NCBI GenBank assembly: GCA_025993795.1
Contig: JAMQHL010000012.1
Location: forward strand, 179,382-243,381
Length of the DNA: 64,000 nt
Source of the DNA: Planctomycetota bacterium
Lineage (GTDB): Bacteria > Planctomycetota > UBA8742 > UBA2392
Direction: 5' to 3'
Shown: positions 45,472 through 61,444 of the stretch, one piece after another
Layout: the number at the start of each line of letters is the position of its first letter
How positions within the stretch are numbered: the stretch's first letter is position 1
Made by a program: the position numbers and the translations under genes
Notes under the pieces: generated by a model
Seen by the model: only the letters and a program-made list of their open reading frames with translations
Databases searched by the model: none
Told to the model about the DNA's origin: nothing

Positions 45472-45472
45472 C

Positions 45473-46186
45473 ATGCGCGGCGTACTCGCAGACGCCGCAC
45501 TTGCCCGCATACCCGCGAAAGCGCTGTCGTTGTTGGCAAGCCTGCGTGGCGAGCGCAGGATTCTCATAAGGCTTGACGGGTCAATAGCATGGGCGCGCTG
45601 GGACGCGCCGGGGCCTGACGTCATTCGCGCATTGCTTCCCGCCGCCGGGGCGCAGTTCTTTGAGCCCGCGGGCGACGGCTGGCGCCCCTGCGGCCGACTG
45701 ATTCATGTTCTGAGCGTTCCCACTGATGGCTTCCTGCCTTTGGAGTCTGTGCTGCTGCCGGCTGCCTCTGCGCAAGCGATTCCGGCCCCCGCGTTACCCG
45801 CTGCTGTCGCCTTCTCGCTGGTGCCGCTCGCAACGCCGCAGCCGGGCAGCGCGCTGTTTTGCAGTGCCGCAGACCTGGCCGCCTGGGCTGACTTGGCGCC
45901 CCAGCGCGATTTTGAGACGCTGCGCGGGGCACGCAGCGGCGGCTCGGTGCTGGTGATGGGCGTGAGTGAATTGCCGACCGTCCAGGGGCGGCGCTTCTGG
46001 GGCGAGCGGCTGTTGGTGCCGCTGGGATTCGGTCCGCACCCCGACTTGCCCGAGAGCACGCTGCTCGAGGCGCTGGAAGTCCCCGGCGATTGCCTGGCGA
46101 TTGCGACGCAGTCTGCGCTTGAGATTGTGCCCTTGAACGCCTTTGCGCCGCTGACGCGCGCGTCAGTGCGGCTGGGGGCGGCATGA
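45473..46186 (+). CDS. Small second protein of the ternary system (bpX-type, unclassified)
   Basis: 237 residues. The ATG begins one base after the MoxR stop, and its own stop overlaps the next start (ATGA). Ala/Leu/Pro-rich alpha/beta protein with R-I-L-I-R-L-D-G-S-I-A-W near residue 28 and a C-terminal W-G-E-R-L-L-V-P-L-G-F. No catalytic motif is visible. Ternary operons commonly encode a short variable protein at this place (bpX family). I assign it by position only. Confidence 0.75.
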   Translation: MRGVLADAALARIPAKALSLLASLRGERRILIRLDGSIAWARWDAPGPDVIRALLPAAGAQFFEPAGDGWRPCGRLIHVLSVPTDGFLPLESVLLPAASAQAIPAPALPAAVAFSLVPLATPQPGSALFCSAADLAAWADLAPQRDFETLRGARSGGSVLVMGVSELPTVQGRRFWGERLLVPLGFGPHPDLPESTLLEALEVPGDCLAIATQSALEIVPLNAFAPLTRASVRLGAA

Positions 46187-48927
46187 GCTACTTCGACTAC
46201 CTGCTGATCCCGCACCAGTACATGCAACGCGTCGGCGAGTTGCACTGGACCGGCGAATGCGACGCCGTGAGTTCGCAGCATGAGACGCTTGCCCTGTCAG
46301 CGTCGCTTGCACAGTTCCTTGAGGGGGCGGCTGGTCGTGAAAAGCCGACTCACTTCGCCTTCGGCTTGCATTTTCTGTGGCTGCTGCTGCGCCAGGACGA
46401 CGCCCTGCAGGCTGCATGGCGTGAAGCCGGCGGAAACTTCCGGAACGCAGGCGCGCTGTTTGCCGAGCTGACGCGAGCATTGCCGCGCGCACCGGGTGAC
46501 GTGACGGTACGCGCGCTGGCGTCGGTGCTGCGCCACCCCGCCGAGCTGGCGGAGCTTCACTGGCTTTCGCGCGCGGCACAGACGCCGCCGCTGCAACCCG
46601 CCCAGTTCGAGGCCCACCTGCGGCAGATGCTTGAGGCGATGACGCCCGACGACGTCCGCCACTGGCTGCGCCACGGCCGCGGCAGGATGACGCTGCGTGC
46701 GCCGCTGCCCGAGCCGCCGCCGCCGCCAAGGCGCACGCTGGTCGGCAGTCTGGAAGAGGCGCTGCGCCGCAAACGCCTGGCGGGAGTTGCGCCATTCGTT
46801 GACCGCATGGTTAGCGCGCTGACGCTGCCGCCACGACGTGCTGCGCGCAGTGAGCTGCCCGTCGGCGGCTATGCCAGCGTGACCAACCGCGGCCACCCGG
46901 ACCAGATTCTGTTCAGTGAGTTCGCAGGCGATGAGCTGGAGTTCCTGCGCCGCTACGCTGAGAACGAGCTGCTTTACTGGCAGCGCGAAGAGCCGCAGTC
47001 TCCGGTGCGGCAAGACCTGCTGGTTGTGCTTGACCAGGGTGTGCGCACCTGGGGCGAGACGCGCCTGCTGCTTGTCGCGGCGGCAATCGCATTCGGCAAG
47101 GGCGCGGCCCGCCGCGGTGTGCCGACGCTGTTCGCGGGCACGAGCGGTCAGGGCAGACCCGTTGACCCGGGTCAGGATGACCTCGGGCCGCTTCTTGAAT
47201 CCAGCGACTTTTCGCCCAACCCCGGCGCAGCCCTGGAAACGGCGCTCAGTGAGCCGACATTTGGGGCACGCGACGTCGTTCTGCTCACGCATCGCCTGAG
47301 CCTGCTGGAAGATGACGTTCGCGTGGCAGCACGCCGGGCACAGCCGGGAGTGCGGCTGTTCGCGCTGGGGCTGGATGAACAGGGCAACGCCGAGTTGTGC
47401 GAATTGCGGCGCGGAGCACCGGTCACGCTTCGCCAGTTTCGCGTCACAATCGAAAAGCCGCCGGAGCCCGTGCCCGCTGGGCAGGAGATCGACTGGCAGG
47501 GCTCGTTTGAAGCTATCCCGATGCCGTTTCGCTTCGGTATCGTCGGCGCGGTGCAAGCGATGGCGCTGGATGCAGAGGGCCGCGTGCTGGTCACGGCAAG
47601 CACTAACGGCTTGCTTCAACTGTGGCCGACGGACGGCAGAACGCACACGAACCTGCCGCGGCCCATGCACAAAGGCGAGGCGCTGGGAACCCCGATAGCC
47701 ATTTGCGGCGTGCGCGGCGGTGTGGCGGTGGTGTATGCCGGCACCGAGTTCGTGCTGGCCCACATCGACATCGCGGCGCGGCGCCTGAAGCTGGCACCGC
47801 TGGGGCAGCATGGCAACCCGGAGCTGATCTCGCTTGGGTACGTGCCGCAGCAGCATTGCGTGGCTGTGCGCGGCTTTGGCCAGGTGGCTCCCTGGATGGT
47901 CGTGTATGACCTCGACACCGGCGCGTCTCCTTTGGGTGCTGCGCAGGGCCGCGTGTTCGAGGCGCAGGCCAGGGTGCGGCAAGCCGAAGAGTCGTTGCTG
48001 CCGCCGCATGTGAATCTCGCGATTGATCGCAGCCTCAGCGGCGACGCGCTGGCACACGCGACAACGCCGCCGGGCAGGGGCTGCCAGTTTGCAATCCTGA
48101 ACCCCGGCCGCGGCGAGCTTGCGTTTCGCGGCGCCGCATCGGTTGCCGGCCCGACTCGACCCATGGTGGATGGCAAGCCGCTGCTCGGAGGCGCGGCGCT
48201 GCTTGAAGGCGTCGCAGCCGCCGGAACTTTGGCCGTCCGCCGAGCGCGCGACGGCCACGAAAGCGTGCTGCTGTTCCAAGGCAGCGAATTGAAGCTGCGC
48301 GCCGAATTGCCGACCAGAGAGAACGCATCCGGTATGTCGATCAGCGACGACGGCAATGTGCTTGCGTACCGCTGGGGCAGCGCGCAGGTTAACGTGCTGA
48401 ACGTAGACGACGGCGTGAAGCCGCGCGCAAAGGCCATGCCCGCGCGCATCCACAGCGAACTGACGCTCGACGCGGGCGACTACTGGTTTACGGTGTACGG
48501 CGGCAAGTTCACTCACCTGGTGCGCTGGGACCGTGATCGGCTTGAGATCTGCTTTCTGCAGGGCAAGCAAGACGTGACGGCCTTCATCCAGCGGCGCCAC
48601 GATTGCGCCGCGCTGAACCCGCGCCGTGTACACGCGCGCCGGGGCGTGGCGGGTGCCTGCAGTTATGACAGCAAGCGCTTCCGGCAGTTCGCAATGGCGC
48701 CGGGCGGCCTCACGTTCCAGAGCGACATCTATGGCCAGTTAGCAGTGCTTGACCGCGCCAACGCACTGGTGGCCATGTGCTTCATTTACAGGGGCACAGT
48801 CGCCGCGTGGCTGCCCGACGGCACGCGCTATGGGCCGTCCGCGGTGACTGGCGGGCCCACAACTCCGGGTGCGCTGCAGCGCATCGGGGCTGCATTGCAA
48901 AGCGCTGTGAAAGGCGGGGCGCCATGA
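46183..48927 (+). CDS. Degenerate vWA plus beta-propeller protein of the ternary system
   Basis: 914 residues. Residues 1-270 are helical and include a Pro run (P-E-P-P-P-P-P-R) near 178. Residues ~277-440 form a vWA-like Rossmann domain: Q-D-L-L-V-V-L-D-Q-G-V-R, where a MIDAS D-x-S-x-S would be, keeps only the Asp (D284). The domain is probably an inactive partner-binding module. Residues ~480-900 are a beta-propeller with repeated A-L-D-A-E-G-R-V-L-V, L-L-Q-L-W and Y-R-G-T-V-A-A-W-L-P-D-G motifs. The stop overlaps the next start (ATGA). The vWA module is the expected substrate or adaptor of the MoxR ATPase. Confidence 0.85.
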   Translation: MSYFDYLLIPHQYMQRVGELHWTGECDAVSSQHETLALSASLAQFLEGAAGREKPTHFAFGLHFLWLLLRQDDALQAAWREAGGNFRNAGALFAELTRALPRAPGDVTVRALASVLRHPAELAELHWLSRAAQTPPLQPAQFEAHLRQMLEAMTPDDVRHWLRHGRGRMTLRAPLPEPPPPPRRTLVGSLEEALRRKRLAGVAPFVDRMVSALTLPPRRAARSELPVGGYASVTNRGHPDQILFSEFAGDELEFLRRYAENELLYWQREEPQSPVRQDLLVVLDQGVRTWGETRLLLVAAAIAFGKGAARRGVPTLFAGTSGQGRPVDPGQDDLGPLLESSDFSPNPGAALETALSEPTFGARDVVLLTHRLSLLEDDVRVAARRAQPGVRLFALGLDEQGNAELCELRRGAPVTLRQFRVTIEKPPEPVPAGQEIDWQGSFEAIPMPFRFGIVGAVQAMALDAEGRVLVTASTNGLLQLWPTDGRTHTNLPRPMHKGEALGTPIAICGVRGGVAVVYAGTEFVLAHIDIAARRLKLAPLGQHGNPELISLGYVPQQHCVAVRGFGQVAPWMVVYDLDTGASPLGAAQGRVFEAQARVRQAEESLLPPHVNLAIDRSLSGDALAHATTPPGRGCQFAILNPGRGELAFRGAASVAGPTRPMVDGKPLLGGAALLEGVAAAGTLAVRRARDGHESVLLFQGSELKLRAELPTRENASGMSISDDGNVLAYRWGSAQVNVLNVDDGVKPRAKAMPARIHSELTLDAGDYWFTVYGGKFTHLVRWDRDRLEICFLQGKQDVTAFIQRRHDCAALNPRRVHARRGVAGACSYDSKRFRQFAMAPGGLTFQSDIYGQLAVLDRANALVAMCFIYRGTVAAWLPDGTRYGPSAVTGGPTTPGALQRIGAALQSAVKGGAP

Positions 48928-51578
48928 CGCTCACACTGCCTGTCACACTGCGCCGCGCTGAAGCCGCCGAATGCGCGGCCTGGTATGTCCCCGGCGATGC
49001 AGCCGCCGTACTTGCCGCGCTGGCCGAGATCGCCGGCGAGCCCGCACCGCGCGTCTACCGCGTGCGCGGCGGCTGGCTGCTGCGCCCCGATGTGCCGACC
49101 AACCGACAGGTTGCCGGTGCATTGCGGCTGCGCCAGGCGGGCCCGGGCCTGTTCGTGCCGATCGACGCGGCGCTTGAGCCGAATCTGCTGGGCGATGAAG
49201 CTCGCGGCCTGCGCGGCGTAATGCTGCCGGGCGCGCTGCTGGCACTTGACCTGTCAAGCCCAATCAAGCTGTCGTTGCTGCTGGCACCGCCGGCGGTGCG
49301 CCGCCGGCAGTGGCAACCGCTGCCCCAGCCGCGGCAGCGTGCAAACGAAATCACTGAGCTGGTTCTGGACCGGCCCCAGGACGACGCGGAAGAGCTTCTC
49401 AAGCAGGGCAACGAGCAGATCACGGGGCAAGAGCCGCAACCCGATGAGACGGGTGCGGGCCGGCAGGCCAAAGGGCGGGCCGAGTTCACGGCGGGCCGGG
49501 CACTCAGCGGCCTGGGCAAGGCGCTGGGCTGGAAGGGCCTCGAGAACGCCGGCGGCAAGCTGATCGGCAAGGGCCTGAACCATTCACCAAAGCTCACGCA
49601 GGGGCTGCTTGGCAAACAGGAAGCAGCGTTGCGCGATCTGCTGCGGCGCTTTCGCGAAGGCCGCACCGATGAGGCGCTTCGGCGCGCGCTGCCGCTGAGC
49701 GGGGAAACAGGTCGCGGCTCACAGCCGGCGGGCAATGCCAACCTGCCGTTCAACAACATCGCCTACTCGCTGGGCAACGTGCTTGCAGGCTCGGGCTCCG
49801 CGGCGGCCAACTGGTTTACCGAGCGGGATGTCTACGCAGCGCTGGTCGACGAGTACCGCAAAGCCGCAGAATCCGCCCGCCACGAAGGCGACTTTCGCCG
49901 CGCCGCCTTCATCTATGGAAAGCTGCTGGGCGACTGGCGGCTGGCCGCCACGATGTTGACGCAGGGCGGGCTGCACCACGACGCCGCAGTGCTGCACCTG
50001 CAGAAGCTGAACGACAAGGTTGCCGCCGCGCGCTCGTATGAGCTGGCGGGCGAAATCGACGAAGCCGTAAGGCTGTATCGCGGCAGCGGCCGCCACGTGG
50101 ATGCCGGCGACCTGTTGCGCCGCGTCGGCGAAGAAGAAGCGGCACTGGGCGAGTATCGCAGTGCTGCAAACGACCTGGGCGAACGCGGCCGCTATCACGC
50201 CGCAGGCGAGCTGTTGCTGGGCAAGGGCCTGCGCGCGCTAGAGGCGCTGGCGCACTTCGAGCGCGGCTGGAAAGCGCGCCCCCACGCCGACGCGGTGCCC
50301 TGCGCCGTGCACATGGCCGTGGTTCACGCCGACCACGCACAGCCACAGGCGTTGATCGAGCTGACCGACGAGGCCGACCGCTACTTCGCGCCCGCGGGCC
50401 GTGAACGCGAGGCCGCAAGCTACTACAACATGCTGGCCGGGTTGTCGCGGCGCCAGGCACTTGGCGAGTTGCAGGGGCGGCTGCGCGACCGGGCATTGCA
50501 GGGGCTTGCACACAAGCTGCGCCAGCGCACGGGCAAAGAACACCTGTTCGAGAGCAAGGCCTGGAGCGACGCACTGATCAGCGACGCACAGTACGCGCTG
50601 AAGCACACGCCAAAGCCGGCGCTGGAGGGACCGCGCACTTCGGGGGTGGTCAGCACGGTTACGGTTTCGCTGGGCGAAGTCAGCGCGGCCTGCCTGGCAC
50701 CGGGCACTGGCGAATTGTTCGTGGGCTATCGCGACGGGCGCGTGCTTTCGTTCTCTGCACTGCGCGGCGTGCAGCCGGTCCGCGACGAGGGGGCGCCCGT
50801 GGTGGGCCTGGCCTGCGACGCGGGCGCCCGGCAGGTTGTGGTGCTGCAACAGGATGATTCGGGCCGCGCGCTCAGCACTTTTCAGCGAGGCGGCGACGGC
50901 CGCTATGGGCGTGGCAGCGCGCACCTGCTGCTGCCGGGCTATTCGGCACTGCTGGGCTCGGGCGTGCTGGAGCGCGGGTTGAGCATGGCGCTTGTCAGCG
51001 AAGGTAGCCTGAGCGTGGTGCAGGGCCAGGGCATGTTGACCTTGCGCGAACACCGGGGCGACGACACCTCGCCGCTGTACCATACGGCGGCCTTCATCTC
51101 GAAACCCGACGGCCGCACTGACCTGCTGCTGGTGGCCTACCGCACGCTGCACCTGTGGTCAGAGGGCGGCGCGATGCACGAAGAGCCAATGCACTGGGAA
51201 GCCGAGGGCCTGGTCGCCGGTGCAACATGCAGTGTGCTGCGCACAGCCGCGCGGGCGCTTGAAATCGCGGGCCGCACGCACCACGGCTCGTTGTACTGGA
51301 GCGGCATTGAGGTCGCACCCGGCGAGGTGCGTTGCGAAAGCCGGCTGGTGAGCGCACGCGGCGACTTCCTGTGCGCGTCATTGACAGGTCAAGGGCAGGT
51401 GGCGGGCGTGACGGCGGGGCACGTGGCGTGGTTCCGGAAAGAGGGCGAGAAGTTCTCGCTGCGCGCGGTGACCAACGCGCCATTGCAGAATGCGGTTGCG
51501 TGCTTCCATGCAGCCGAAGGCGGCGAGCTGCTGGTACTGACGGGCGACGGCCGGCTGCACATGGTGGCGCTGCCTTAG
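48924..51578 (+). CDS. TPR plus beta-propeller protein of the ternary system
   Basis: 884 residues from the ATG overlapping the upstream stop. The first ~150 residues are an alpha/beta domain with an E-C-A-A-W-Y-V-P-G-D motif near residue 15, of a kind I associate with bpX-type ternary components. A low-complexity linker follows (~150-240). Residues ~300-550 are TPR/SEL1-like helical repeats (A-R-H-E-G-D-F-R-R-A-A-F-I-Y-G-K-L; A-A-A-R-S-Y-E-L-A-G-E-I-D-E-A). Residues ~575-884 are a beta-propeller (V-S-A-A-C-L-A-P-G-T-G-E-L-F-V-G-Y). Two propellers in a row of the operon probably recognise the triggering ligand. The gene ends exactly where a foreign-looking remnant begins. Confidence 0.85.
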   Translation: MTLTLPVTLRRAEAAECAAWYVPGDAAAVLAALAEIAGEPAPRVYRVRGGWLLRPDVPTNRQVAGALRLRQAGPGLFVPIDAALEPNLLGDEARGLRGVMLPGALLALDLSSPIKLSLLLAPPAVRRRQWQPLPQPRQRANEITELVLDRPQDDAEELLKQGNEQITGQEPQPDETGAGRQAKGRAEFTAGRALSGLGKALGWKGLENAGGKLIGKGLNHSPKLTQGLLGKQEAALRDLLRRFREGRTDEALRRALPLSGETGRGSQPAGNANLPFNNIAYSLGNVLAGSGSAAANWFTERDVYAALVDEYRKAAESARHEGDFRRAAFIYGKLLGDWRLAATMLTQGGLHHDAAVLHLQKLNDKVAAARSYELAGEIDEAVRLYRGSGRHVDAGDLLRRVGEEEAALGEYRSAANDLGERGRYHAAGELLLGKGLRALEALAHFERGWKARPHADAVPCAVHMAVVHADHAQPQALIELTDEADRYFAPAGREREAASYYNMLAGLSRRQALGELQGRLRDRALQGLAHKLRQRTGKEHLFESKAWSDALISDAQYALKHTPKPALEGPRTSGVVSTVTVSLGEVSAACLAPGTGELFVGYRDGRVLSFSALRGVQPVRDEGAPVVGLACDAGARQVVVLQQDDSGRALSTFQRGGDGRYGRGSAHLLLPGYSALLGSGVLERGLSMALVSEGSLSVVQGQGMLTLREHRGDDTSPLYHTAAFISKPDGRTDLLLVAYRTLHLWSEGGAMHEEPMHWEAEGLVAGATCSVLRTAARALEIAGRTHHGSLYWSGIEVAPGEVRCESRLVSARGDFLCASLTGQGQVAGVTAGHVAWFRKEGEKFSLRAVTNAPLQNAVACFHAAEGGELLVLTGDGRLHMVALP

Positions 51579-52087: not shown

Positions 52088-52415
52088 GCTATCTCCGGCC
52101 TGAGCAATCGCGGGGTATACAGGGTGGCCAAGGCCTGTCGCCGCCGCAACGCGAACCAAAGGGGGTTCCATGCTGTCTTAGCAAGGGTCATTTGTCGTAC
52201 CAGTCTGAACTTCATCCATGCCTCAGCCAATGTAAGAACGCTCGTGCTCAGAACTGAGTTCGCCGCCATTCTAGATCTTCAAGACCTGCTCCGGTTTGGG
52301 CTTTTTTCGCGCGTGAATCCTTCGTCTTGGTGACCGGAAAGCTCCGGCGCCGCCTAGCACAGCTCCAGCGGACCATGCCACTCCGGCAATTCAGGGGTGA
52401 CTCGGTAACCCGTAG
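52088..52415. other. 328-bp gap without a supported gene
   Basis: Only short frames with no ribosome-binding site. A T-rich stretch (TTTTTT at about 52302-52307) lies within it. No hairpin strong enough to call a terminator. Confidence 0.5.
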
Positions 52416-53153
52416 TCAGCAGCGGAGGCGGGCCGCATAGAGCGGTGCCCCTTCGATGCTGCCACAGCCACAGTCCAGATAGAGCCCGTGGCGGAACAGC
52501 ATCGGCTTCCGGTCGTGCTTTGCAGCGAGATCAGAACACAGGAGTTCGAGTACGGGTCCACTCGGGTCCGGTTCGAACGCCGACAGCCCTTGCCGCTCAC
52601 CATCGGGCAGTGTCGGAACGTGCCCACACACCACGAATCCGCAGCCCGGGTCGCCCAGCTCATCTGACCAGGCCTGCTCGGTGTTCGCGACCGGTTGGTT
52701 CCAGGTGGGATTCGAGGCTGCGCCAAACGGCGTGATCGGGCCATGGCTGAAGGTAACGCCACCGACGGTAACTTTGCGCGGCAGGTTCTCGAGCCAGTCC
52801 AGCATCCCGTCCTGCTTCAGGTAGCCATGCAGGTCTCCAGATTTGCCGAAGCCGCGGCCAGCCTCACAGGCGAAAGACTGTACGGTCATTTGGCCACCGA
52901 TGTGTGAAGTCAGCCAGTACTTGCCGCCGCCATGGACGTAGTCGAGTAGCATTTCCTCATGATTGCCCATCAGCGCCGTGTGACCGCGTTCCGTCAACGC
53001 GCGAACCCGGCGCAGTACCTCAGCCGATCTTTCGCCGCGATCGATGTAGTCGCCCAAGAACACAAGCTTGTTGTCGCCAGCCTGGGCCAGCACTGATTCA
53101 AGCGCATCCAGGTTCCCGTGGATGTCCGGAATAACGACTACCACTTCTTCCAT
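52416..53153 (-). CDS. Calcineurin-like metallophosphatase (PrpA/ApaH/lambda-type)
   Basis: 245 residues from M-E-E-V-V-V-V-I-P-D-I-H-G with GGAG upstream. The metal-binding set of the PPP family is complete: D-I-H-G-N near 11, G-D-Y-I-D-R-G near 37, G-N-H-E near 69, S-H-G-P-I near 145 and C-G-H-V near 185. Hydrolyses phosphoesters: protein Ser/Thr phosphates or diadenosine polyphosphates. The length fits the small bacterial/phage protein phosphatase type. It lies in the accessory stretch beside the HTH regulator, on the same strand, so a role in that cassette is possible but unproven. Confidence 0.88.
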   Translation of the reverse strand: MEEVVVVIPDIHGNLDALESVLAQAGDNKLVFLGDYIDRGERSAEVLRRVRALTERGHTALMGNHEEMLLDYVHGGGKYWLTSHIGGQMTVQSFACEAGRGFGKSGDLHGYLKQDGMLDWLENLPRKVTVGGVTFSHGPITPFGAASNPTWNQPVANTEQAWSDELGDPGCGFVVCGHVPTLPDGERQGLSAFEPDPSGPVLELLCSDLAAKHDRKPMLFRHGLYLDCGCGSIEGAPLYAARLRC

Positions 53154-53429
53154 GAATGTCTCCGCCTTCTGTGGGGATCTGTCGCGTACTCCCACCCGGG
53201 AGGACCCCTTGCCGTACTTCCGTGTCACGCTCTTCGGTATCGACTACGCCGATTCCTGGGCGGCCGGTCCGTCCCGCGACCGCATTGCCTGGCGCGATGC
53301 TGGCAGCTTCCCGAACTCGCCGCGCGTCGGCATGAATTGCCGCAGCACGCGGGATTCCGATATGCGTACCTATCCTGAGGTGCTGCGCTTTTCGACCGCC
53401 GTTTACAGTCGCCAACGGCGGCGGGTTGG
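53154..53429. other. 276-bp stretch between phosphatase and regulator, coding status undecided
   Basis: A minus-strand frame starts at 53433 with an ATGA overlap of the regulator stop and runs to 53098 (111 residues), overlapping the phosphatase start by 56 nt. A plus-strand frame here also has plausible composition (P-Y-F-R-V-T-L-F-G-I-D-Y-A-D-S-W). Neither has clear family signals, so no gene is called. Confidence 0.35.
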
Positions 53430-54344
53430 TCATTGGATGAGAGTCTGTAAGACCTTGGCCACGATCTCCGCATAGGCGGGCCAGGTCGTGCCTGCAGGCG
53501 CGAGCGGCGACACTGAGAACAGAATATCGGGCTGGTAGATGTCCGGCGGGGTCCACACGAGCTCAATGCCGTGCTTCTTGCGCAGGGTGGCCCTGCAGTC
53601 CTCGAACTCGCTCAGGCTTTCCTCCGGCAGGTATCTGGTGCCGCGTAGCTTGGCGACAACCGGCTTTGGGGCGAACTGCGTGAATACGCAGCGGTACCTG
53701 AAGCAGTGGTCTTCATTGCCGGGTTGCGGCAGGACCCACATGCAAAGCCAGTGGTCGCCCTTGCGGATTTCGCCTGACCTCTCGCTGTTCGACCAGCGCT
53801 TCTGAACGCAGTCGATGAGCGCGCATTTGACCCACATGTCATCGGGATTCTCGTTGCCGAAGCGGTTGGTGACCTTGAACTCGAGATTATTGCCGGCCGA
53901 CGCAAGCAGATACTTCACCGCGCCCATGATGTCTTCGGCGACGCTCTCCAGCGCGAGCGCCCTGTCGTCGTCGGGATCCTGAGGTTCCGCGTATGCAAGC
54001 GGGCCTTCGGCAACATCAACCTGCTTGACTTGCAGCAGATCAAGCATCTTCTTTTGATCGTGGCTCACCTCGATCTGCATCAGTTCAGTGCTGTCGCTCC
54101 AGGTACGCATCAGCGCTGTGGCCAACTGCAGCCGCGCGACGCTTGGCAGCATTTCCAGGTCGGCAGCTAAGCGCGAAAGGAACGCAAGTTGCAGGGCCTT
54201 TGGTCGGCTGCGGGAGTAGCCCGACTCCCAAGCTTGCGCCGCCGACGGCCGCACAAAGAGTACCCCGGCACCCATCTCACCATGGGTCAGCCCCAGCAAC
54301 CGCCGGACATGACCCACGGGGTTATCGTCGCCTTGACTTGGCAT
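53430..54344 (-). CDS. HTH (XRE-like) regulator with unknown C-terminal domain
   Basis: 304 residues from the ATG at 54344, preceded by GGAGG. The N-terminal ~60 residues form a helix-turn-helix (V-G-H-V-R-R-L-L-G-L-T-H-G-E-M ... P-S-A-A-Q-A-W-E-S-G), resembling plasmid-style XRE regulators. The remaining ~240 residues are unrecognised: helical to ~130, then mixed with W/C-rich strands (D-H-W-L-C-M-W-V-L-P-Q-P; Y-R-C-V-F-T-Q-F-A). It could be a ligand-sensing domain. It is divergent from the cassette at 54657 across a palindrome-containing control region, so it probably regulates that cassette and itself. Confidence 0.78.
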   Translation of the reverse strand: MPSQGDDNPVGHVRRLLGLTHGEMGAGVLFVRPSAAQAWESGYSRSRPKALQLAFLSRLAADLEMLPSVARLQLATALMRTWSDSTELMQIEVSHDQKKMLDLLQVKQVDVAEGPLAYAEPQDPDDDRALALESVAEDIMGAVKYLLASAGNNLEFKVTNRFGNENPDDMWVKCALIDCVQKRWSNSERSGEIRKGDHWLCMWVLPQPGNEDHCFRYRCVFTQFAPKPVVAKLRGTRYLPEESLSEFEDCRATLRKKHGIELVWTPPDIYQPDILFSVSPLAPAGTTWPAYAEIVAKVLQTLIQ

Positions 54345-54425
54345 TGAGACCTCCGCCCTGAACTTTGCGAAAGACAGCGTACCGTAAACCGCCACTCAAA
54401 CAATATCAATGTCTCAAGATAACGG

Positions 54426-54437
54426 TGGCTATAGCCA
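54426..54437. promoter_or_regulatory. 12-bp palindrome, candidate operator
   Basis: TGGCTATAGCCA is perfectly self-complementary. It lies 82 bp upstream of the HTH regulator start in the divergent control region, a fitting place for autoregulation. Confidence 0.5.
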
Positions 54438-54563
54438 TGAGGGATGGCCGTTGAGATTTCCTGTCGGTCAAGCAAGGTCGCAATTCAAGGCAGTTTGGCC
54501 GATTCGACTGTCCTTCGATCCCTCGTTTCCGTCGAACTCGCCCAGCGCAAACAGGCTTTTTCA

Positions 54564-54604
54564 GATAACACTGTATTGACATTTACTCATGGATATGTTA
54601 TCTA
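54564..54604 (+). promoter_or_regulatory. Sigma-70-like promoter flanked by an inverted repeat
   Basis: A perfect -35 TTGACA (54576-54581), a 17-nt spacer and a -10-like TATCTA (54599-54604) face the cassette start at 54657. A perfect inverted repeat GATAACA (54564-54570) / TGTTATC (54596-54602) spans the promoter, the right arm covering the -10. A third GATAAC lies at 54418-54423. This looks like an operator that blocks RNA polymerase when bound. Confidence 0.65.
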
Positions 54605-54656
54605 TAGTCGTGAGCAACGCTGTCGTTTGATAGTGGTTGTCGGGACCGGAGGGTGG

Positions 54657-55250
54657 ATGAGTCTGTTCATGGCCTACATCAGGGTGCGTGACTTCGCCTG
54701 GCAGAACCGACTATCCAAGCGGTTCATCCGCGCCTGGGCGCTGCGGCGGGTTCAGGCTCGAGGGCTGGTACCAAGAAAACTCAGCCGCGCCGAGGATCGG
54801 GTACTGCTCATCCTTCGCCAAGCAAGGGCCTACGAGCACGCCCTCGCACACGGCTTCTATGCAGCTGTGAAGACCTACAAATTGCCGGTCAGCCGGAAGT
54901 TCTTCGATTGGGAGAGCGTGAAGTGCACGATCACGGAGATGGACACGCTGAAAAGGAAGCTCATCGTCGCTGTTTCGGCCGAGGATCACCAGCGCTTGCG
55001 TGAGTGGCAGGAGTTCGCAGGTGTGCCCAGCCTGAGCGAGGAGATCTGGAAGAACGTGATGCGACCGCTCTTCCACATGGACAAACTTGAAGCGCTTCAT
55101 GACCGACTCAAAGAACTGCTCGGGGGACAGGACCATGAACCACGAACTCTGCCAGACGAACTTGAGCGGCCGCGCGATGCAGATGGCTGTGTTCCTTACC
55201 GCATTAGCGCCGGAGCAGTCGGATGGAGCCATGGTGGAACGCATCCTTGA
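54657..55250 (+). CDS. Basic helical protein of unknown function, first gene of the cassette
   Basis: 197 residues from the ATG at 54657, with GGAGGG 5 nt upstream. The frame is open upstream through the promoter, which argues against an earlier start. Very Arg/Lys-rich N-terminal half (W-Q-N-R-L-S-K-R-F-I-R-A-W-A-L-R-R), then a helical region with an acidic patch (S-E-E-I-W-K-N-V-M). The last ~40 codons overlap the next gene in another frame by 116 nt and look less protein-like, so the true end may be shorter through a frameshift. No family is recognised. Confidence 0.65.
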   Translation: MSLFMAYIRVRDFAWQNRLSKRFIRAWALRRVQARGLVPRKLSRAEDRVLLILRQARAYEHALAHGFYAAVKTYKLPVSRKFFDWESVKCTITEMDTLKRKLIVAVSAEDHQRLREWQEFAGVPSLSEEIWKNVMRPLFHMDKLEALHDRLKELLGGQDHEPRTLPDELERPRDADGCVPYRISAGAVGWSHGGTHP

Positions 55251-55419
55251 GATGGCCGATGGCCGCACGCCAGAACAGCTTGAATCGCTGCTGGCCAAAG
55301 CGCTCGAGCGCGTCTTTGCGGCACTTAATATGGGGGGACAGATTGATCGTGTACCGACAGAAGCCAGCGGCCTGATCGAGCTGCTGGATCCTTGCTGGTC
55401 AGGCCGGGCTATCCAATAG
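55135..55419 (+). CDS. Small helical protein of unknown function
   Basis: 94 residues from the ATG at 55135 (GGGGGACAGG upstream). Helical (A-M-Q-M-A-V-F-L-T-A-L-A-P; P-E-Q-L-E-S-L-L-A-K-A-L-E-R-V-F-A). It overlaps the previous frame by 116 nt and is followed 15 nt later by the next small gene. No family is recognised. Confidence 0.65.
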   Translation: MNHELCQTNLSGRAMQMAVFLTALAPEQSDGAMVERILEMADGRTPEQLESLLAKALERVFAALNMGGQIDRVPTEASGLIELLDPCWSGRAIQ

Positions 55420-55434
55420 GAAGGAGTGGCAACC

Positions 55435-55590
55435 ATGGCGTCGAAAAGAGGGCTCATCAAGCTTACGGGGTCACCGAGCAACAGGCAGTACGCACTCATC
55501 GACCGAGACACCGGGCACGTCATCTTCACATCGCCGAGCCGTACCGAAGTCCACCGCTACGCGACAAGTCTCGGCTATGTGTGCAGCTGA
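55435..55590 (+). CDS. 51-residue protein of unknown function
   Basis: From the ATG at 55435 with an excellent AAGGAG 8 nt upstream, to a TGA at 55588. Sequence contains R-Q-Y-A-L-I-D-R-D-T-G-H-V-I-F-T-S, a beta-hairpin-like pattern, and T-E-V-H-R-Y-A-T-S-L-G-Y. Position and ribosome-binding site argue for a real gene. No family is recognised. Confidence 0.65.
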   Translation: MASKRGLIKLTGSPSNRQYALIDRDTGHVIFTSPSRTEVHRYATSLGYVCS

Positions 55591-55637
55591 GCCGATCTGT
55601 ACTTACTGTGCTTGTCCCTTTTCGAAAGGATGTACCC

Positions 55638-56678
55638 ATGCCTTTAGTGATTCCAGACTGTCCAGCGCGTTTGCCACAGGAGTTCCGCATCCGCATGGTC
55701 CAGATGGTTGAGGACTGGCTTTCACAGCACTGGAGACCGAGCGATGGCAAGCGGACGGTGGAAAACGTGCAGAAGGCTCTCTCCGATCCCGGCCGACGGT
55801 TTCCCGGACCGACAGGCGATGACGCAGGGAGCGTCGCCATTTCCTTCGACGATCCGGAGCAGCTTCCTGGCAACGCAGACATGCAGAGGGTTTTCCTTGT
55901 GCTATCAAAGACACGGCGGGAGGCGATCATCAGAGATGCTCTGAAGCCAACGCCAGACCTGAGCCGTGTCCAATACGTTCCAGCCTGGAACGGCAACTCG
56001 AACTTGTCAGAAACTGCGGAGCTCAGTGGGGGCCGATCGCCGCTGACACCCGAATCGATTTTGGACGGCGCAGGCGCGCACGGCAGGAGCACGTTTGCGT
56101 TGCTATACCCGCCGAGTGAACGGGATGGCGCCATTCCTGAACAGATTGTAACCACGCTGATCACGAAGGTGTTCCATGACCATGGTCGTTTCGTCCTCCC
56201 GGAACTTCGCTTTCATAGTCATTTGGATCGGCTTGATCTATGCGCTATTGACGATCCGGTGTTGTGGTTGTTTGAAGCCAAGCTCATCGAGAAGACCCCC
56301 TTGGCTGACCTACGCGCATTTTGCGACGACGTGTGTACGCGCCGTTTAGGAGACCCGCTTTGGCGCCAAGCCATTTGGCAGCGACTGAACCCCAAGCTGG
56401 CCATGAAGACCGTGCGCTGTGCGGGAGTCGCTCTCGTTCGCGGGTCTGCCTCGTCTCACGTCCTTGATTTCGCCAACAAGCTCGCAAGCGCGCCGGGGCC
56501 AATCAAGGACTGCAAAGACTGGAAAGGTGAAAGGCGTCCCGAACTGGGCGGCTGGACAATGCATCAGCCCGCCTATGTGTGCACACATTGTTATAGCGAC
56601 GGGCCGGACTCGGAAGTCTGGCTGATGATGGTCACGCGGGACTTTCCACCGACTCAGGTCAGTCAGGCAGAACAGTAG
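55638..56678 (+). CDS. Putative PD-(D/E)XK-like nuclease protein
   Basis: 346 residues from the ATG at 55638 (AAAGGA upstream; an ATG at 55629 is a weaker option). Residues ~1-160 are an unrecognised N-terminal region. Near residues 190-215 the order L-P-E-L-R-F ... D-R-L-D-L-C-A-I-D ... W-L-F-E-A-K-L fits the PD-(D/E)XK core (helix Glu, Asp, then E-x-K). The C-terminal ~130 residues, ending G-G-W-T-M-H-Q-P-A-Y-V-C and W-L-M-M-V-T-R-D-F-P-P, are shared with the next gene. A nuclease role is inferred from the motif only; the fold is not confirmed. Confidence 0.6.
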   Translation: MPLVIPDCPARLPQEFRIRMVQMVEDWLSQHWRPSDGKRTVENVQKALSDPGRRFPGPTGDDAGSVAISFDDPEQLPGNADMQRVFLVLSKTRREAIIRDALKPTPDLSRVQYVPAWNGNSNLSETAELSGGRSPLTPESILDGAGAHGRSTFALLYPPSERDGAIPEQIVTTLITKVFHDHGRFVLPELRFHSHLDRLDLCAIDDPVLWLFEAKLIEKTPLADLRAFCDDVCTRRLGDPLWRQAIWQRLNPKLAMKTVRCAGVALVRGSASSHVLDFANKLASAPGPIKDCKDWKGERRPELGGWTMHQPAYVCTHCYSDGPDSEVWLMMVTRDFPPTQVSQAEQ

Positions 56679-56749
56679 GCCCCCTGCCAAACCCAAACTC
56701 TTGGGCGCCCGGTACGGATGCCGGCCGCCCTTAGCCGTCGAGGAGACAC

Positions 56750-57430
56750 ATGCCTGCCCCAGAAACAGTCCTCGAATCCATGGTCGAGCACACCCGCAAA
56801 GCGCTCGCACAGGCGTGCGTTCTGGCGCCATCGACACGGCCGGTCGACCCTTTGCATTGCCAGCTTCCGCGCAGCTTTTTGAGCGCGATGGTCGCGCCGG
56901 CTTTCTGGAGCCACGGCGGCTTCGCGCCCCGGCTGCATCGTCCCGGCGGTCCCTGGGGCGGGATCGACTGTGCATGGGACGAAACACATGTCTGGATGAT
57001 CGAACATGCCAAACTCAACTCCCTCTGGTACCTACGCGCCGAGAAGCACTCCGTAATCGCCCATGCGACGCGCCTCACTGACCTTGAACGCCTGGTGCGG
57101 ATTAAGGCCTACCTGTCGCCTGAACTTCGCGCGCGTCCGCTGCGTCTGGCTTTACTGATGCAAGTCTGGGTCGCGGACGAGTCAGGACTTGCGGCTCTCG
57201 AATGGGTCCGCACCCGCGCGGCCGGCGAGCCCGTCACCGTTGGCTGGGACAACGAGCCCGCGCCTGAACTCGAAGGCTGGAAGATGCATGCCCCGCGGCA
57301 AGTCTGTGCCTACACCGACGTGCAGTTGTGGATGGCCATGATGACGCTCGACAACCCGCCCGGCCGTGTTGGTGGAATCGACAAATTCGAGGCACCAACC
57401 CTTCCCGTCGATCCGGAAACCCACCCATGA
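56750..57430 (+). CDS. Paralogue of the preceding protein with a disrupted core
   Basis: 226 residues, with GAGGAG 8 nt before the ATG. It lacks the long N-terminal region of its neighbour. It aligns over the core and end: S-H-G-G-F with D-H-G-R-F, I-D-C-A-W-D with L-D-L-C-A-I-D, W-M-I-E-H-A-K-L with W-L-F-E-A-K-L, and G-W-K-M-H-A-P-R-Q-V-C with G-W-T-M-H-Q-P-A-Y-V-C, ending W-M-A-M-M-T-L-D-N-P-P. An extra His disrupts the E-x-K triad and the upstream Glu is missing, so it is probably non-catalytic, perhaps a regulatory subunit. Last gene of the cassette. Confidence 0.7.
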   Translation: MPAPETVLESMVEHTRKALAQACVLAPSTRPVDPLHCQLPRSFLSAMVAPAFWSHGGFAPRLHRPGGPWGGIDCAWDETHVWMIEHAKLNSLWYLRAEKHSVIAHATRLTDLERLVRIKAYLSPELRARPLRLALLMQVWVADESGLAALEWVRTRAAGEPVTVGWDNEPAPELEGWKMHAPRQVCAYTDVQLWMAMMTLDNPPGRVGGIDKFEAPTLPVDPETHP

Positions 57431-57783
57431 TGGCGATCTACGAACTTTCAGCCCGGGCCACATCACTGGCGCGGCACGCGCCGCAGAAGCAGTCCGCAGT
57501 TCTGACCGACACACGTTTCGGAGGACGAACTTAGCCACGACGTCACCCAAGGGACCCCAGCTCGCTTTTCCCAACTCTTCCGGGCCGACCGGGTGCCGGT
57601 TTACAGCTTGCTGATGCCGGAACCCTGGCCGCCGAACATGATCTTCCGCCGCGAAGTCTGGCCGTGATCAGCGTAGCCGTGTCCGTCAGTGCGGCCCCCG
57701 GAAAGTGTGTCTCGATGCGTTCCCGCAGATTGCCCGGCTCGTGCTATACAGGCACGGGTGTACAACGTCTGTTTGGAGAAGTG
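57431..57783. other. 353-bp gap, possible remnant at its end
   Basis: No supported gene. The end of a minus-strand frame (about 57601-57680) reads H-G-Y-A-D-H-G-Q-T-S-R-R-K-I-M-F-G-G-Q-G and then stops, and could be the tail of a lost gene, but this may be chance. The promoter of the downstream amine-catabolism operon should lie in the last ~100 bp. Confidence 0.4.
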
Positions 57784-59232
57784 ATGCAGACACGCAACCT
57801 GATCGGCGGCCAGTGGGTCGGTGCCCTGTCCGGGCGCGAGGAGCCAGTCAACGACCCCGCCACGGACGAACAGATCGCAATGGTGCCGCATGGTGGATCG
57901 CTCGATGCGCGTGCCGCGATTGAGGCCGCCTATGACGCTCTGGGCGGTTGGCAGCAGCGAACCGCCAACGAGCGCGCGAAACTGCTGCATCGCCTTGCCG
58001 CCCTGATGCTTGAGCGCCAGGAACGGCTGGCAGTGCTGATGACGCGCGAACAGGGCAAGCCGCTGGCGGAGTCGCGTGGCGAGATTGGCTATGCGGCTTC
58101 CTTCATTGAGTGGGCGGCCGAAGAGGGCAAGCGGTTGTACGGGGAAATCATTCCTGCATCCCACGCGGACAAACGCATTCTCGTGCTTCGCCAGCCGGTC
58201 GGTGTGACGGCATGTATCACGCCGTGGAATTTTCCCGCGGCCATGATCACCCGCAAGCTCGGACCGGCACTGGCGGCAGGTTGCACGATGGTAGTGAAGC
58301 CGGCACCCCAGACACCCTTGTCGGCGATTGCACTCGGCGAGCTAAGCATCGAAGCCGGCATCCCTGCCGGGGTCGTGAACATCATCACGGGCGATGCAGA
58401 AGCGATCGGGGATGAGCTGTTATCGAACCCGGTCGTGCGCAAGCTTTCGTTCACGGGCTCAACGGGCGTGGGCAAGCTGCTGATGGCAAAAGCCGCGCAG
58501 AATCTGACGCGACTGTCGCTGGAGCTTGGCGGGCACGCGCCATTCATCGTGTTTGACGACGCCGACCTGGATGCGGCCGTGCAAGGCGCCATGGCCACCA
58601 AGTTTCGAAACATGGGGCAGACCTGCATCTGCGCCAACCGGTTCCTGGTGCAGGACAGGATTTACGACGCCTTTGTCGGGAAGCTGCTGGAGGTCGTAAA
58701 GGGACTGAAAGTCGGCAGGGGCAGTGACGCCGGCGTCCATGTCGGGCCGCTGATCAATGATGCGGCCGTGCAGAAGGTCGAAGCCCAGGTCGAAGATGCC
58801 AAGGCCAAGGGCGCGCGGGTACTCGCGGGCGGCTGCCGCTGGGCTGGTCCGGCGGGGCTGAGCAACCGGTTTTTTCAGCCCACGGTCATTGACGGGTTCA
58901 CCGACGACATGCTCATCAATCGGCAGGAAACCTTCGGGCCCGTGGCACCCTTGCGGCGATTCACGACAGAAGGCGAAGCACTGCGGCTGGCCAACGATTC
59001 CATTTATGGGCTGTCCGCCTACTTCTATACCCGGGATGCGGGTCGGCTGATGCGTGTGGCGGAAGGGCTGGAGTACGGGATCATCGGCGCCAATGACGGC
59101 GGCCCCTCCACGGTGCAGGCGCCTTTCGGCGGCATGAAACAGTCTGGATTCGGGCGCGAGGGCGGGAAGTACGTCATGAGTGAGTATGTTGAGATCAAGT
59201 ACGTTTCATGGGGAGGAGTCGGCTCAGCATGA
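57784..59232 (+). CDS. gabD: NAD(P)-dependent succinate- or glutarate-semialdehyde dehydrogenase
   Basis: 482 residues from M-Q-T-R-N-L-I-G-G-Q-W, with GGAGAAGTG directly before the ATG. ALDH family: W-N-F-P near residue 150, K-P-A near 175, F-T-G-S-T near 227, catalytic E in L-E-L-G-G-H near 253 and catalytic C in Q-T-C-I-C-A-N near 287. It oxidises an omega-semialdehyde to the acid (succinate semialdehyde to succinate, or glutarate semialdehyde to glutarate). The stop overlaps the aminotransferase start (ATGA). Confidence 0.93.
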   Translation: MQTRNLIGGQWVGALSGREEPVNDPATDEQIAMVPHGGSLDARAAIEAAYDALGGWQQRTANERAKLLHRLAALMLERQERLAVLMTREQGKPLAESRGEIGYAASFIEWAAEEGKRLYGEIIPASHADKRILVLRQPVGVTACITPWNFPAAMITRKLGPALAAGCTMVVKPAPQTPLSAIALGELSIEAGIPAGVVNIITGDAEAIGDELLSNPVVRKLSFTGSTGVGKLLMAKAAQNLTRLSLELGGHAPFIVFDDADLDAAVQGAMATKFRNMGQTCICANRFLVQDRIYDAFVGKLLEVVKGLKVGRGSDAGVHVGPLINDAAVQKVEAQVEDAKAKGARVLAGGCRWAGPAGLSNRFFQPTVIDGFTDDMLINRQETFGPVAPLRRFTTEGEALRLANDSIYGLSAYFYTRDAGRLMRVAEGLEYGIIGANDGGPSTVQAPFGGMKQSGFGREGGKYVMSEYVEIKYVSWGGVGSA

Positions 59233-60548
59233 CAAAAACCACCGACCTGATCGCCCGCCGTCGCGCCGTAGTCGCGCGTGGTGTCGGCATGTTCACCGGC
59301 GACATTTCCGTGGACTCCGCCATCGGGGCCAGACTGACCGACTTGGACGGGCGCGAGATGATCGACTTTGCCGCCGGCATCGGCGTGCTGAACGCCGGCC
59401 ACTCCGATCCGTCCGTCGTCAGTGCGATCGCCCGGCAGGCAGGCAAGCTCGTTCATGCCTGCATCCACATCGCCACCTACGAGCCTTACGTAGCACTGTG
59501 CGAGAAGCTCACTTCGCTGATTCCCCACGGCGAGTCCACCAAGGCAATGCTGGTCAACAGCGGGGCCGAAGCCGTTGAGAACGCGGTCAAGATCGCACGG
59601 CAGGCAACGCGCCGGCCGGCTGTGCTCTGCTACGAGGGCGCGTTCCACGGGCGCACGCTGTTGGGCATGACGCTTACCGCCAAGAGCGCTTACAAGCTCA
59701 ACTGCGGGCCGTTCGCCCCCGAGATCTATCGGCTGGGCTCGCCCGACTACTTTCGAAACGGGGACGGGCTGCCTGTCGCCAAGTTCGTGGAGCGCGAACT
59801 TCAGCGGTTGCGAAATGTGTTCATTTCAGGCCCGATACCCGCCGACCACGTCGCGGCGGTGATCATCGAACTGTTACAGGGTGAAGGCGGGTTCATCCCT
59901 GTCCACCCGGATTATCTGCGCGGGCTGCGCAGAATCTGTGACGAGCACGGTATTGTGCTGATCTTCGACGAAGTGCAGACGGGTTTCTGCCGTACCGGCA
60001 AGTGGGCAGCCTTTGAGCACTCAGGCGTAGTGCCGGACCTTTCAACCTGGGCCAAGGCAATGGGTGGCGGCCTGCCGATCGGAGCCGTACTCGGCAAGGC
60101 CAGGGTCATGGACGCGGCGGAGCCCGGCACCATCGGCGGCACCTATGGTGGCAACCCGGTCGCGTGCGCGAGCGCCCTGGCAACCATTGAAGTGATGGAG
60201 CGGAAAAATCTCTGCGAGCGCGCGGTGGCTATCGGCGCCCGTGTGCGTGAGCGCTTCCAGATGTTTTATGACAAATACGATTGTGTCGGGGACGTGCGGG
60301 GGCTTGGCGCCATGATGGCAATCGAATTCTGCCACGGGCGCGACCCGTCACGCCCGGCCTCAGAACTGGTTGCCCGCGCTGCTGCCTACTGTCGTGACAA
60401 CGGCGTGCTCGTGCTGACGGCGGGCGCATTCAAGAACGTCATCCGCGTGCTTTCGCCGCTGGTGATCGAGGATGCGGACCTGCAGAAGGGTCTGGATGTC
60501 ATCGAGACCGGCGTTGGGTTGGCAATCAACGAAGGTGGTACCTCATGA
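59229..60548 (+). CDS. gabT: Class III aminotransferase (4-aminobutyrate/5-aminovalerate type)
   Basis: 439 residues from the ATG overlapping the dehydrogenase stop. PLP-binding pattern: N-S-G-A-E-A-V-E-N-A near residue 113, Y-E-G-A-F-H-G-R-T near 138, I-F-D-E-V-Q-T-G-F near 245 and the Schiff-base lysine in W-A-K-A-M-G-G-G-L-P-I-G-A near 273. It converts GABA or 5-aminovalerate plus 2-oxoglutarate to the semialdehyde, the substrate of the preceding enzyme. The stop overlaps the next start (ATGA). Confidence 0.93.
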   Translation: MTKTTDLIARRRAVVARGVGMFTGDISVDSAIGARLTDLDGREMIDFAAGIGVLNAGHSDPSVVSAIARQAGKLVHACIHIATYEPYVALCEKLTSLIPHGESTKAMLVNSGAEAVENAVKIARQATRRPAVLCYEGAFHGRTLLGMTLTAKSAYKLNCGPFAPEIYRLGSPDYFRNGDGLPVAKFVERELQRLRNVFISGPIPADHVAAVIIELLQGEGGFIPVHPDYLRGLRRICDEHGIVLIFDEVQTGFCRTGKWAAFEHSGVVPDLSTWAKAMGGGLPIGAVLGKARVMDAAEPGTIGGTYGGNPVACASALATIEVMERKNLCERAVAIGARVRERFQMFYDKYDCVGDVRGLGAMMAIEFCHGRDPSRPASELVARAAAYCRDNGVLVLTAGAFKNVIRVLSPLVIEDADLQKGLDVIETGVGLAINEGGTS

Positions 60549-61444
60549 GCAAGAACACGCTGTTCGCAATCGCGGGTGTGCAGCAGACACTTGGGGCGCT
60601 GACCGAGAACGTCAGCGCGATGACCACAAAGCTGGACGTGCTGATGGGGATTTACCCGTGGGTGCAGATGGTAGTGTTCAGCGAGCTTGCGCCGTTTGGT
60701 CCATTGACGGTCAATGCCCAGCCGTTTCCCAACAACACAGAGGCACACTTTTGCGCCCTGGCAAAGAAGCATGGGATCTGGCTGCTTCCGGGCTCAATGT
60801 TCGAACGCACCGAGAGTGCGGTTTTCAACACGGCAAGTGTGATCAGCCCGGCCGGCGAAGTGGTGACGCGCTACCGCAAGATGTTTCCGTTCTATCCCTA
60901 CGAGGAAGGCGTGACCGGCGGCGGTGAGTTCTGTGTGTTCGACATTCCTGAAGTTGGTCGCTTTGGCGTGTCGATTTGCTATGATATGTGGTTCCCGGAG
61001 ACATCGCGTACACTTGCAGCGATGGGGGCTGAAGTCATCCTTCACCCCACTCTCACATCCAGCATCGACCGAGACGTCGAGCTGGCTATGGCCCGCGCCA
61101 CGGCAGCACAGCAGCAGTGCTTCTTTTTCGACGTGAATGGGCTTGGGGTCGGCGGCATTGGAAGATCGATCGTCATCGGCCCGCACGGCGATGTCCTGCA
61201 CACGGCGGGTTCCGGCGAAGAGATCTTCCCCATCGAGATTGATCTGTTCCGTGTACGTCGTAGTCGCGAGGCCGGCCTGCGGGGCCTTGGCCAGCCGCTC
61301 AAGAGCTTCCGGGACCGCAAGGTGCTGTTCCCGGTGTACGGACCAGAGTGGCACACGCACGGCTACTTCGCACATCTCGGCCCGCTCGAGAAACCGAAGC
61401 GCGCTGGAAACACTGAACCACCTGGAGTGAATAGTCCCCAGTAG
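60545..61444 (+). CDS. Nitrilase-superfamily carbon-nitrogen hydrolase
   Basis: 299 residues. The Glu-Lys-Cys triad is visible: F-S-E-L-A near residue 40, Y-R-K-M-F-P near 110 and S-I-C-Y-D-M-W-F-P-E near 143. Family members hydrolyse amides or N-carbamoyl groups. In this operon two roles fit: removing the amide of 5-aminovaleramide or 4-guanidinobutyramide, or the carbamoyl group of N-carbamoylputrescine made from agmatine. The sequence alone does not decide. It overlaps the aminotransferase (ATGA) and is followed 9 nt later by the decarboxylase. Confidence 0.9.
   Translation: MSKNTLFAIAGVQQTLGALTENVSAMTTKLDVLMGIYPWVQMVVFSELAPFGPLTVNAQPFPNNTEAHFCALAKKHGIWLLPGSMFERTESAVFNTASVISPAGEVVTRYRKMFPFYPYEEGVTGGGEFCVFDIPEVGRFGVSICYDMWFPETSRTLAAMGAEVILHPTLTSSIDRDVELAMARATAAQQQCFFFDVNGLGVGGIGRSIVIGPHGDVLHTAGSGEEIFPIEIDLFRVRRSREAGLRGLGQPLKSFRDRKVLFPVYGPEWHTHGYFAHLGPLEKPKRAGNTEPPGVNSPQ

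What the first reader, a model, noticed from the sequence alone, without database searches (positions are those of the whole stretch)
53430..57430. Unrecognised regulated cassette: candidate novel system
An HTH regulator faces five co-directional genes (197, 94, 51, 346 and 226 residues) across a tightly built control region. Each downstream gene has a good ribosome-binding site and none is recognisable by sequence, apart from a PD-(D/E)XK-like signature in the 346-residue protein. The set lies in an accessory stretch flanked by gene remnants and next to a conflict-type operon. The shape (regulator, small proteins, nuclease-like pair) is that of defence or mobile-element-associated modules, but function is inference.
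Basis: partly seen in the sequence, partly recalled or inferred. Interest (0 to 1): 0.75.

Follow-up and report, generated by a model that had tools for sequence, protein, structure and literature searches.

The report
Swappable-nuclease gene cassette in Planctomycetota
A small block of unrecognised genes, a probable switch protein facing a run of related DNA-cutting-type proteins, has moved between two lineages of uncultured planctomycete bacteria with one nuclease-like gene exchanged for another, the mark of genes used in biological conflict, though what it actually does is untested.

Summary
A divergent gene (53430-54344, -) faces five co-directional ORFs (197, 94, 51, 346, 226 aa), all with ribosome-binding sites and none matched by Pfam, NCBIfam, PHROGs or PADLOC. 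The cassette recurs, same order and about 80% DNA identity, in one other MAG of the same Planctomycetota family (contig JAIOJA010000029.1). It is absent from the other genomes of a 392-genome phylum sample and from plasmids, phages and IMG/VR at the sensitivities used. New facts: (1) the 346- and 226-aa proteins are paralogues, and the relative carries three tandem members; (2) between ~80%-identical flanks, the window's 51-aa + 346-aa genes are replaced in the relative by a different, 34%-identical member (slot swap); (3) the 346-aa C-terminal domain models as an alpha-beta-beta-beta-alpha-beta core with LD...FEAK in PD-(D/E)XK position; (4) the window holds a truncated third paralogue; (5) the best dyad in each control region falls at the same aligned place, beside TTGAC(A/T); (6) cassette synonymous divergence is mostly below that of the neighbouring vertically inherited gene, so it moved horizontally. 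Best reading: a mobile, regulated conflict module with exchangeable nuclease effectors. Defence function is inferred. The 'HTH' label is not confirmed.

The parts
53430..54344 (-). Divergent presumed regulator, 304 aa; XRE-like N-terminus by eye (W-E-x-G...R-P), unknown C-terminal domain
   Evidence: ORF; 74% aa identity and dN/dS 0.32 to L006:2361-3275(-); no family match; structure model poor, pLDDT 46.6
54576..54615 (.). Putative promoter/operator: TTGACA (54576-54581) followed by dyad ACTCATGGATATGTTATCTATAGTCGTGAGC (54585-54615)
   Evidence: Best 12-pair dyad of the intergenic region in each copy falls at the same aligned position (window 8/12, L006 3516-3546 10/12). Alone, the window dyad is not significant (794/1000 shuffles reach it); the L006 one is (31/1000). 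No consensus sigma-70 site by strict scan
54657..55250 (+). Gene A, 197 aa; segment KLIVAVSAEDHQRLREWQEFAGVPSLSEEIWKNVMR looks ribbon-helix-helix-like by eye
   Evidence: 69% identity to L006:3583-4185, dN/dS 0.25 before the overlap; no Pfam match even for that segment
55135..55419 (+). Gene B, 94 aa, most conserved protein of the cassette
   Evidence: 89% identity to L006:4061-4336, dN/dS 0.16. In the A/B overlap substitutions fall mainly on B third positions
55435..55590 (+). Gene C, 51 aa, strong SD (AGGAAGGAG); present only in the window copy
   Evidence: no homologue in L006
55638..56678 (+). Gene D, 346 aa: unique N-terminal ~130 aa plus C-terminal PD-(D/E)XK-type domain (LD...FEAK), variable effector slot
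   Evidence: Paralogue of E. Model of residues ~132-341 pLDDT mostly 60-88 with alpha-alpha-beta-beta-beta-alpha-alpha-beta core. Foldseek lists rich in PD-(D/E)XK enzymes, none below E 1e-3. Replaced in L006 by the 34%-identical X
56750..57430 (+). Gene E, 226 aa: second member of the same family; motif ID...IEHAK, conserved in both copies but off the canonical ExK spacing
   Evidence: 73% identity to L006:5109-5789, dN/dS 0.38; ATGA overlap with F start in both copies
57427..57534 (+). Remnant of third paralogue F (first ~30 residues, then stop; weaker similarity continues to about 57732)
   Evidence: tblastn of L006 F (216 aa) onto the window
52416..53153 (-). Calcineurin-like metallophosphatase, linked accessory gene (downstream of the regulator here; downstream of F and a 176-aa ORF on the + strand in L006)
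   Evidence: PF00149 E=1.2e-15; 83% aa identity and inverted placement in L006; no close homologue in the other 14 family genomes

Best explanation
A mobile, self-regulated conflict module of an uncultured Planctomycetota family. The divergently transcribed protein (and possibly gene A) binds the dyad next to the A promoter and holds the cassette off until a trigger relieves it. The operon then makes small helper proteins (A, B, with or without C) and one to three tandem PD-(D/E)XK-fold proteins. At least one of these (D here, X in the relative) keeps the full catalytic signature and would cut nucleic acid of an invading element or of the host cell. E and F are diverged or inactive paralogues that probably partner or modulate it. 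The active slot is exchanged between lineages while the frame is kept. Shown: gene content, co-inheritance, homology of D, E, X and F, slot replacement, purifying selection, transfer between genera, shared dyad position. Supported by model: the PD-(D/E)XK fold of D. Inferred: catalysis, DNA binding by the regulator, induction, and the conflict/defence role.
For: Same cassette in a second genus at ~80% DNA identity, collinear. Sharp replacement of window 55407-56703 (C+D) by L006 4333-5062 (X) inside conserved flanks. [quoted passage not shown] operonic context', is listed as a hallmark of conflict systems in PMC7159879. Tandem paralogy D/E/X/F. Fold and catalytic-motif placement with Foldseek neighbours EcoRV, HincII, Hjc, AddAB, arenavirus endonuclease and a viral PD-(D/E)XK nuclease at rank 1 of BFVD. 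Cassette dS 0.33-0.51 (A 0.86) against 0.80-1.62 for the adjacent core bpX3 gene between the same genera. Absent from the same place in the closest relative, G010, where homology stops 11 bp after bpX3. GC 57-61% against 67-69% in the core flank. Conserved dyad position. Decayed F at one edge.
Against: Only two copies, so 'swap' is a single event. No Foldseek hit below E 1e-3 and no sequence-profile match to any nuclease. LD-x(8-16)-(D/E)xK occurs in about 7% of shuffled D sequences. E has EHAK, not ExK, and F lacks the residues. The 'HTH' and RHH calls are by eye and failed profile tests. No known defence gene lies in the cassette. bpX3 is one marker, and A's higher dS breaks a uniform picture. 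C and the N-terminal third of D are unexplained.
Confidence: 0.5

Rival explanations
1. Toxin-antitoxin-like addiction module: the D/E-family proteins are host-directed nuclease toxins, neutralised by A/B or by an inactive paralogue, with the upstream protein or A as the autoregulating antitoxin; its main effect is its own maintenance.
For: Small proteins with a possible RHH segment, long A/B overlap and E/F ATGA overlap, dyad over the promoter, mobility and decay.
Against: No antitoxin domain matched. F is lost in the window with E intact, so F is not an obligatory antitoxin of E. Cassettes of 5-8 genes with several tandem effectors are larger than ordinary TA pairs.
Confidence: 0.25
2. Cargo or relic of a mobile element (integrative element or prophage remnant) without a joint function: linked accessory genes that travel together by hitchhiking.
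For: Low GC, gene remnants, inverted position of the metallophosphatase, possible transposase-like fragment by eye in L006:8617-8976, absence from most relatives.
Against: Purifying selection on regulator, A, B, E (dN/dS 0.16-0.38), conserved order and overlaps, conserved dyad position; no integrase, tRNA site or viral-contig relatives.
Confidence: 0.15
3. Restriction-modification system, with D/E as restriction enzymes and the upstream protein as a C-protein-like controller.
For: PD-(D/E)XK-type fold, controller-like divergent gene with dyad, mobility.
Against: No methyltransferase among the cassette proteins or elsewhere in either copy (ORF lists). An unprotected sequence-specific nuclease would need another safeguard.
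Confidence: 0.05

Closest known systems
PD-(D/E)XK nuclease superfamily (restriction-endonuclease-like fold; e.g. EcoRV, Hjc, UPF0102)
   Same: Predicted core topology and D...E-x-K placement in D and X; Foldseek neighbours
   Different: No sequence-profile match to any described family; distinctive C-terminal L-x-G-[WY]-x-[MI]-[HY]-x-P-x-x-V-C ... W motif; E and F deviate in or lack catalytic residues
Conflict systems with displaceable effectors (VMAP and other MoxR-vWA ternary systems, polymorphic toxins; PMC7159879, PMC3482391)
   Same: Preserved operon frame with exchange of a nuclease-like effector; patchy, mobile distribution
   Different: No NTPase, vWA, VMAP or secretion/repeat component in the cassette; much smaller; exchange is of whole genes, not C-terminal domains
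Controller-regulated modules (C-protein R-M systems, type II TA)
   Same: Divergent small regulator, dyad beside the promoter, overlapping genes
   Different: No methyltransferase; no recognised antitoxin or toxin domain; multiple paralogous effectors
MoxR-vWA-beta-propeller ternary system (adjacent, window 44347-51578)
   Same: Neighbour on the chromosome; itself a described conflict system with Pfam domains bpMoxR, bpX1, bpX2, bpX3
   Different: Core to the family (bpX3 in 13 of 16 genomes), whereas the cassette is accessory (2 of 16); no shared proteins

Membership tests
PD-(D/E)XK nuclease | alpha-beta-beta-beta-alpha-beta core | tested here: met
   AlphaFold2 model of D, residues 138-341, pLDDT mostly 60-88
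PD-(D/E)XK nuclease | Acidic residue on strand 2 and (D/E)xK on strand 3 | tested here: met
   D: RLDLCAID...WLFEAK; X: ALDVCAVL...PLESK. E has ID...IEHAK and F has no such residues
PD-(D/E)XK nuclease | Significant structural or profile similarity to a known member | tested here: inconclusive
   Known members dominate the Foldseek lists but best E 0.022 (PDB) and 0.0079 (BFVD); no Pfam or PDB sequence match
PD-(D/E)XK nuclease | Metal-dependent phosphodiesterase activity | not testable with these tools
   needs biochemistry
XRE/HTH regulator | Profile match to an HTH family | tested here: not met
   No Pfam, NCBIfam or PHROG HTH match, including the N-terminal 95 aa alone at E up to 10
XRE/HTH regulator | Binds a dyad in its own divergent promoter | not testable with these tools
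   Dyad at a conserved position; binding needs experiment
Restriction-modification system | Cognate methyltransferase | tested here: not met
   None among the cassette proteins or neighbours of either copy
Type II toxin-antitoxin | Recognised antitoxin DNA-binding domain | tested here: not met
   RHH-like segment of A has no Pfam match
Known anti-phage defence system | PADLOC model match | tested here: not met
   Six cassette proteins, none matched at E up to 1
Conflict system with displaceable effectors | Effector replaced inside a conserved operon frame | tested here: met
   C+D against X between ~80%-identical flanks; a single pair of genomes
Conflict system with displaceable effectors | Patchy, horizontally moved distribution | tested here: met
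   2 of 16 family genomes; dS lower than a core neighbour

The most novel reading that the evidence does not exclude
A previously undescribed antiphage or anti-plasmid defence system, confined so far to one Planctomycetota family, in which an inducible operon delivers an exchangeable PD-(D/E)XK nuclease together with inactive paralogues that act as specificity or control subunits.
Probability: 0.3. Interest if true: 0.65.

Novelty: new variant of a known kind. Interest (0 to 1): 0.5.

Why it matters
Planctomycetota are poorly covered by defence databases built on cultured hosts. The cassette gives at least five protein families without a name, a nuclease family with tandem active and inactive members, and two natural alleles that differ by one exchanged slot. 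That makes a clean experiment: same frame, two nucleases. If it defends, it adds a system type that current models miss; if it is an addiction module, it is an unusually large one.

Tried and rejected
Plasmid and phage tblastn with D, the regulator, E (plasmids) and A (plasmids): nothing. IMG/VR scans with D, regulator, E, A, the D/E/X/F alignment and B: nothing. GTDB scan with the regulator: only the G003 contig. Phylum sample of 392 genomes with regulator, D/E family, A and B: only G000 and G003 at convincing E-values; marginal hits (E 6e-4 to 8e-3) were short segments inside long frames, some with stops, and one (G000:C29) lies antisense to an endonuclease/exonuclease-like gene, so treated as chance. 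PDB sequence profiles: no meaningful match; gene A to poly-A polymerase at E 0.011 is marginal and not followed. Regulator structure prediction too poor to search. Relation of D to a 505-aa nuclease-like protein near a metallophosphatase homologue in G009: none. Joining G003 contigs C62 (bpX3 at its edge) and C76 (cassette) by end overlap: none found, so whether bpX3 also neighbours the cassette there is open. Rfam and tRNA scans empty. R-M reading rejected for lack of a methyltransferase.

Full report
Observation. The regulator is best started at ATG 54344 (304 aa). A-E each follow a purine-rich ribosome-binding stretch. No cassette protein passes a cut-off in Pfam, NCBIfam, PHROGs or PADLOC. 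The window is G000:C15:179382-243381, a 3.29 Mb, 85% complete assembly. The relative that carries the second copy is titled Planctomycetota bacterium MAG_44, contig JAIOJA010000029.1, which places the window in the same family of that phylum.

The cassette is a unit. Of 16 family genomes, only G000 and G003 carry the D family. G003 contig C76 (L006) holds regulator 2361-3275(-), A 3583-4185, B 4061-4336, X 4361-5041, E 5109-5789, F 5786-6436, a 176-aa ORF, and the metallophosphatase 7143-7880. Blocks 53418-54344, 54658-55406 and 56704-57512 align at about 80% DNA identity in the same order and orientation; the metallophosphatase block 52354-53166 aligns at 86% but inverted and on the other side. 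Protein identities are 74% (regulator), 69% (A), 89% (B) and 73% (E). dN/dS is 0.32, 0.25, 0.16 and 0.38, so the genes are under purifying selection.

Slot exchange. Between the conserved blocks, window 55407-56703 (C and D) has no DNA match to L006 4333-5062 (X); sliding identity falls from 84% to about 20-27% and returns to 83%. D's C-terminal domain and X are still homologous (34%, z = 20 against shuffles). D and E are paralogues within the window, and X, E and F are three tandem members in the relative. The window has lost F: residues 1-30 remain at 57427-57534, then a stop, with weaker similarity to about 57732 just before the aldehyde dehydrogenase. The E stop and F start overlap (ATGA) in both copies. 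[quoted passage not shown] This is one instance of it, in one pair of genomes.

Nuclease fold. The model of D (five-row alignment) is poor in the first 130 residues but mostly 60-88 pLDDT in 132-341, with helix 138-156, helix 169-181, strands 185-187, 201-205 and 208-218, helices 223-249, strand 258-270, helix 274-283, strands 312-317 and 325-336. LD lies at the second strand and FEAK in the third, as in PD-(D/E)XK enzymes. Foldseek gives no match below 1e-3. However, more than half of the 50 PDB rows shown are PD-(D/E)XK entries (EcoRV many times, arenavirus endonucleases, Hjc, HincII, AddAB; 3fov first, by my knowledge a UPF0102 protein), and the best viral model is a PD-(D/E)XK nuclease. 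X keeps LD...LESK, E has ID...IEHAK (identical in both copies), and F has neither.

Control region. The 312-bp intergenic stretch is less conserved (53-60%) than the genes. The best dyad of each copy was found independently and falls at the same aligned place (window 54585-54615, 8/12 pairs; L006 3516-3546, 10/12), next to TTGACA/TTGACT. Alone, the window dyad is no better than chance (794 of 1000 shuffles); the L006 one is (31 of 1000). The strict sigma-70 scan finds nothing. 'Tightly built control region' is therefore partly supported.

History. The 884-aa bpX3 protein ending at 51578 is core: it is found in 13 of 16 family genomes, at 90% and 72% in the genus and 51-56% in genus g3. In the closest relative, G010, DNA homology stops at window 51589 and the cassette is absent. 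Between G000 and the g3 genomes bpX3 has dS 0.80-1.62, whereas the cassette has 0.33-0.51 (A 0.86). GC is 57-61% in the cassette and 67-69% in the core flank. This points to transfer between the genera after they split. bpX3 is one marker, and A's higher value may reflect a mosaic. Outside these two genomes the cassette was not found in a 392-genome phylum sample, plasmids, phages or IMG/VR at the sensitivities used. Metagenome contigs could not be searched.

Mechanism. I favour a regulated conflict module with an exchangeable nuclease effector (0.5), over an addiction module (0.25), hitchhiking cargo (0.15) and restriction-modification (0.05; no methyltransferase). Induction, DNA binding, cleavage and defence are all inferred. 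The regulator's HTH nature and A's RHH-like segment are by-eye leads that failed the profile tests, so neither protein is filed under those families. The adjacent bpMoxR-bpX2-bpX1-bpX3 operon is a described system and is not part of the cassette.

Noticed in passing
window 44347-51578: Complete MoxR-vWA-beta-propeller ternary conflict system (bpMoxR 5.6e-90, bpX2 7.2e-34, bpX1 just below cut-off, bpX3 3.3e-9), vertically conserved in the family.
   Followed up: yes
window 39725-40123: About 400 bp between genes, 82% identical to G009:C26, where it lies directly downstream of bpX3; no Rfam match. A mobile or structured non-coding element is possible.
   Followed up: partly
window 55135-55250: 116-nt out-of-frame overlap of genes A and B kept in both copies at 91-92% DNA identity against 74% just upstream; substitutions fall on B third positions.
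   Followed up: yes
window 57784-61444: Succinate-semialdehyde dehydrogenase, GABA transaminase and nitrilase-family genes; the dehydrogenase has no close homologue (E<=1e-150) in the other 15 family genomes, so this right flank also looks accessory.
   Followed up: partly
L048 (G009:C5:19000-31000) 3344-10417: A 37%-identical metallophosphatase homologue sits among PDDEXK_4, PDDEXK_1 and DUF932 proteins and an unclassified 505-aa nuclease-like protein; a possible recurrent phosphatase-nuclease neighbourhood.
   Followed up: partly
L006 8052-8976: A 195-aa ORF with a sub-threshold TIR_2 match and a fragment resembling a transposase N-terminus by eye, at the far side of the second copy.
   Followed up: no
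window 33125-33195 and 38248-38318: 71-bp direct repeat, 92% identical, about 5 kb apart.
   Followed up: no
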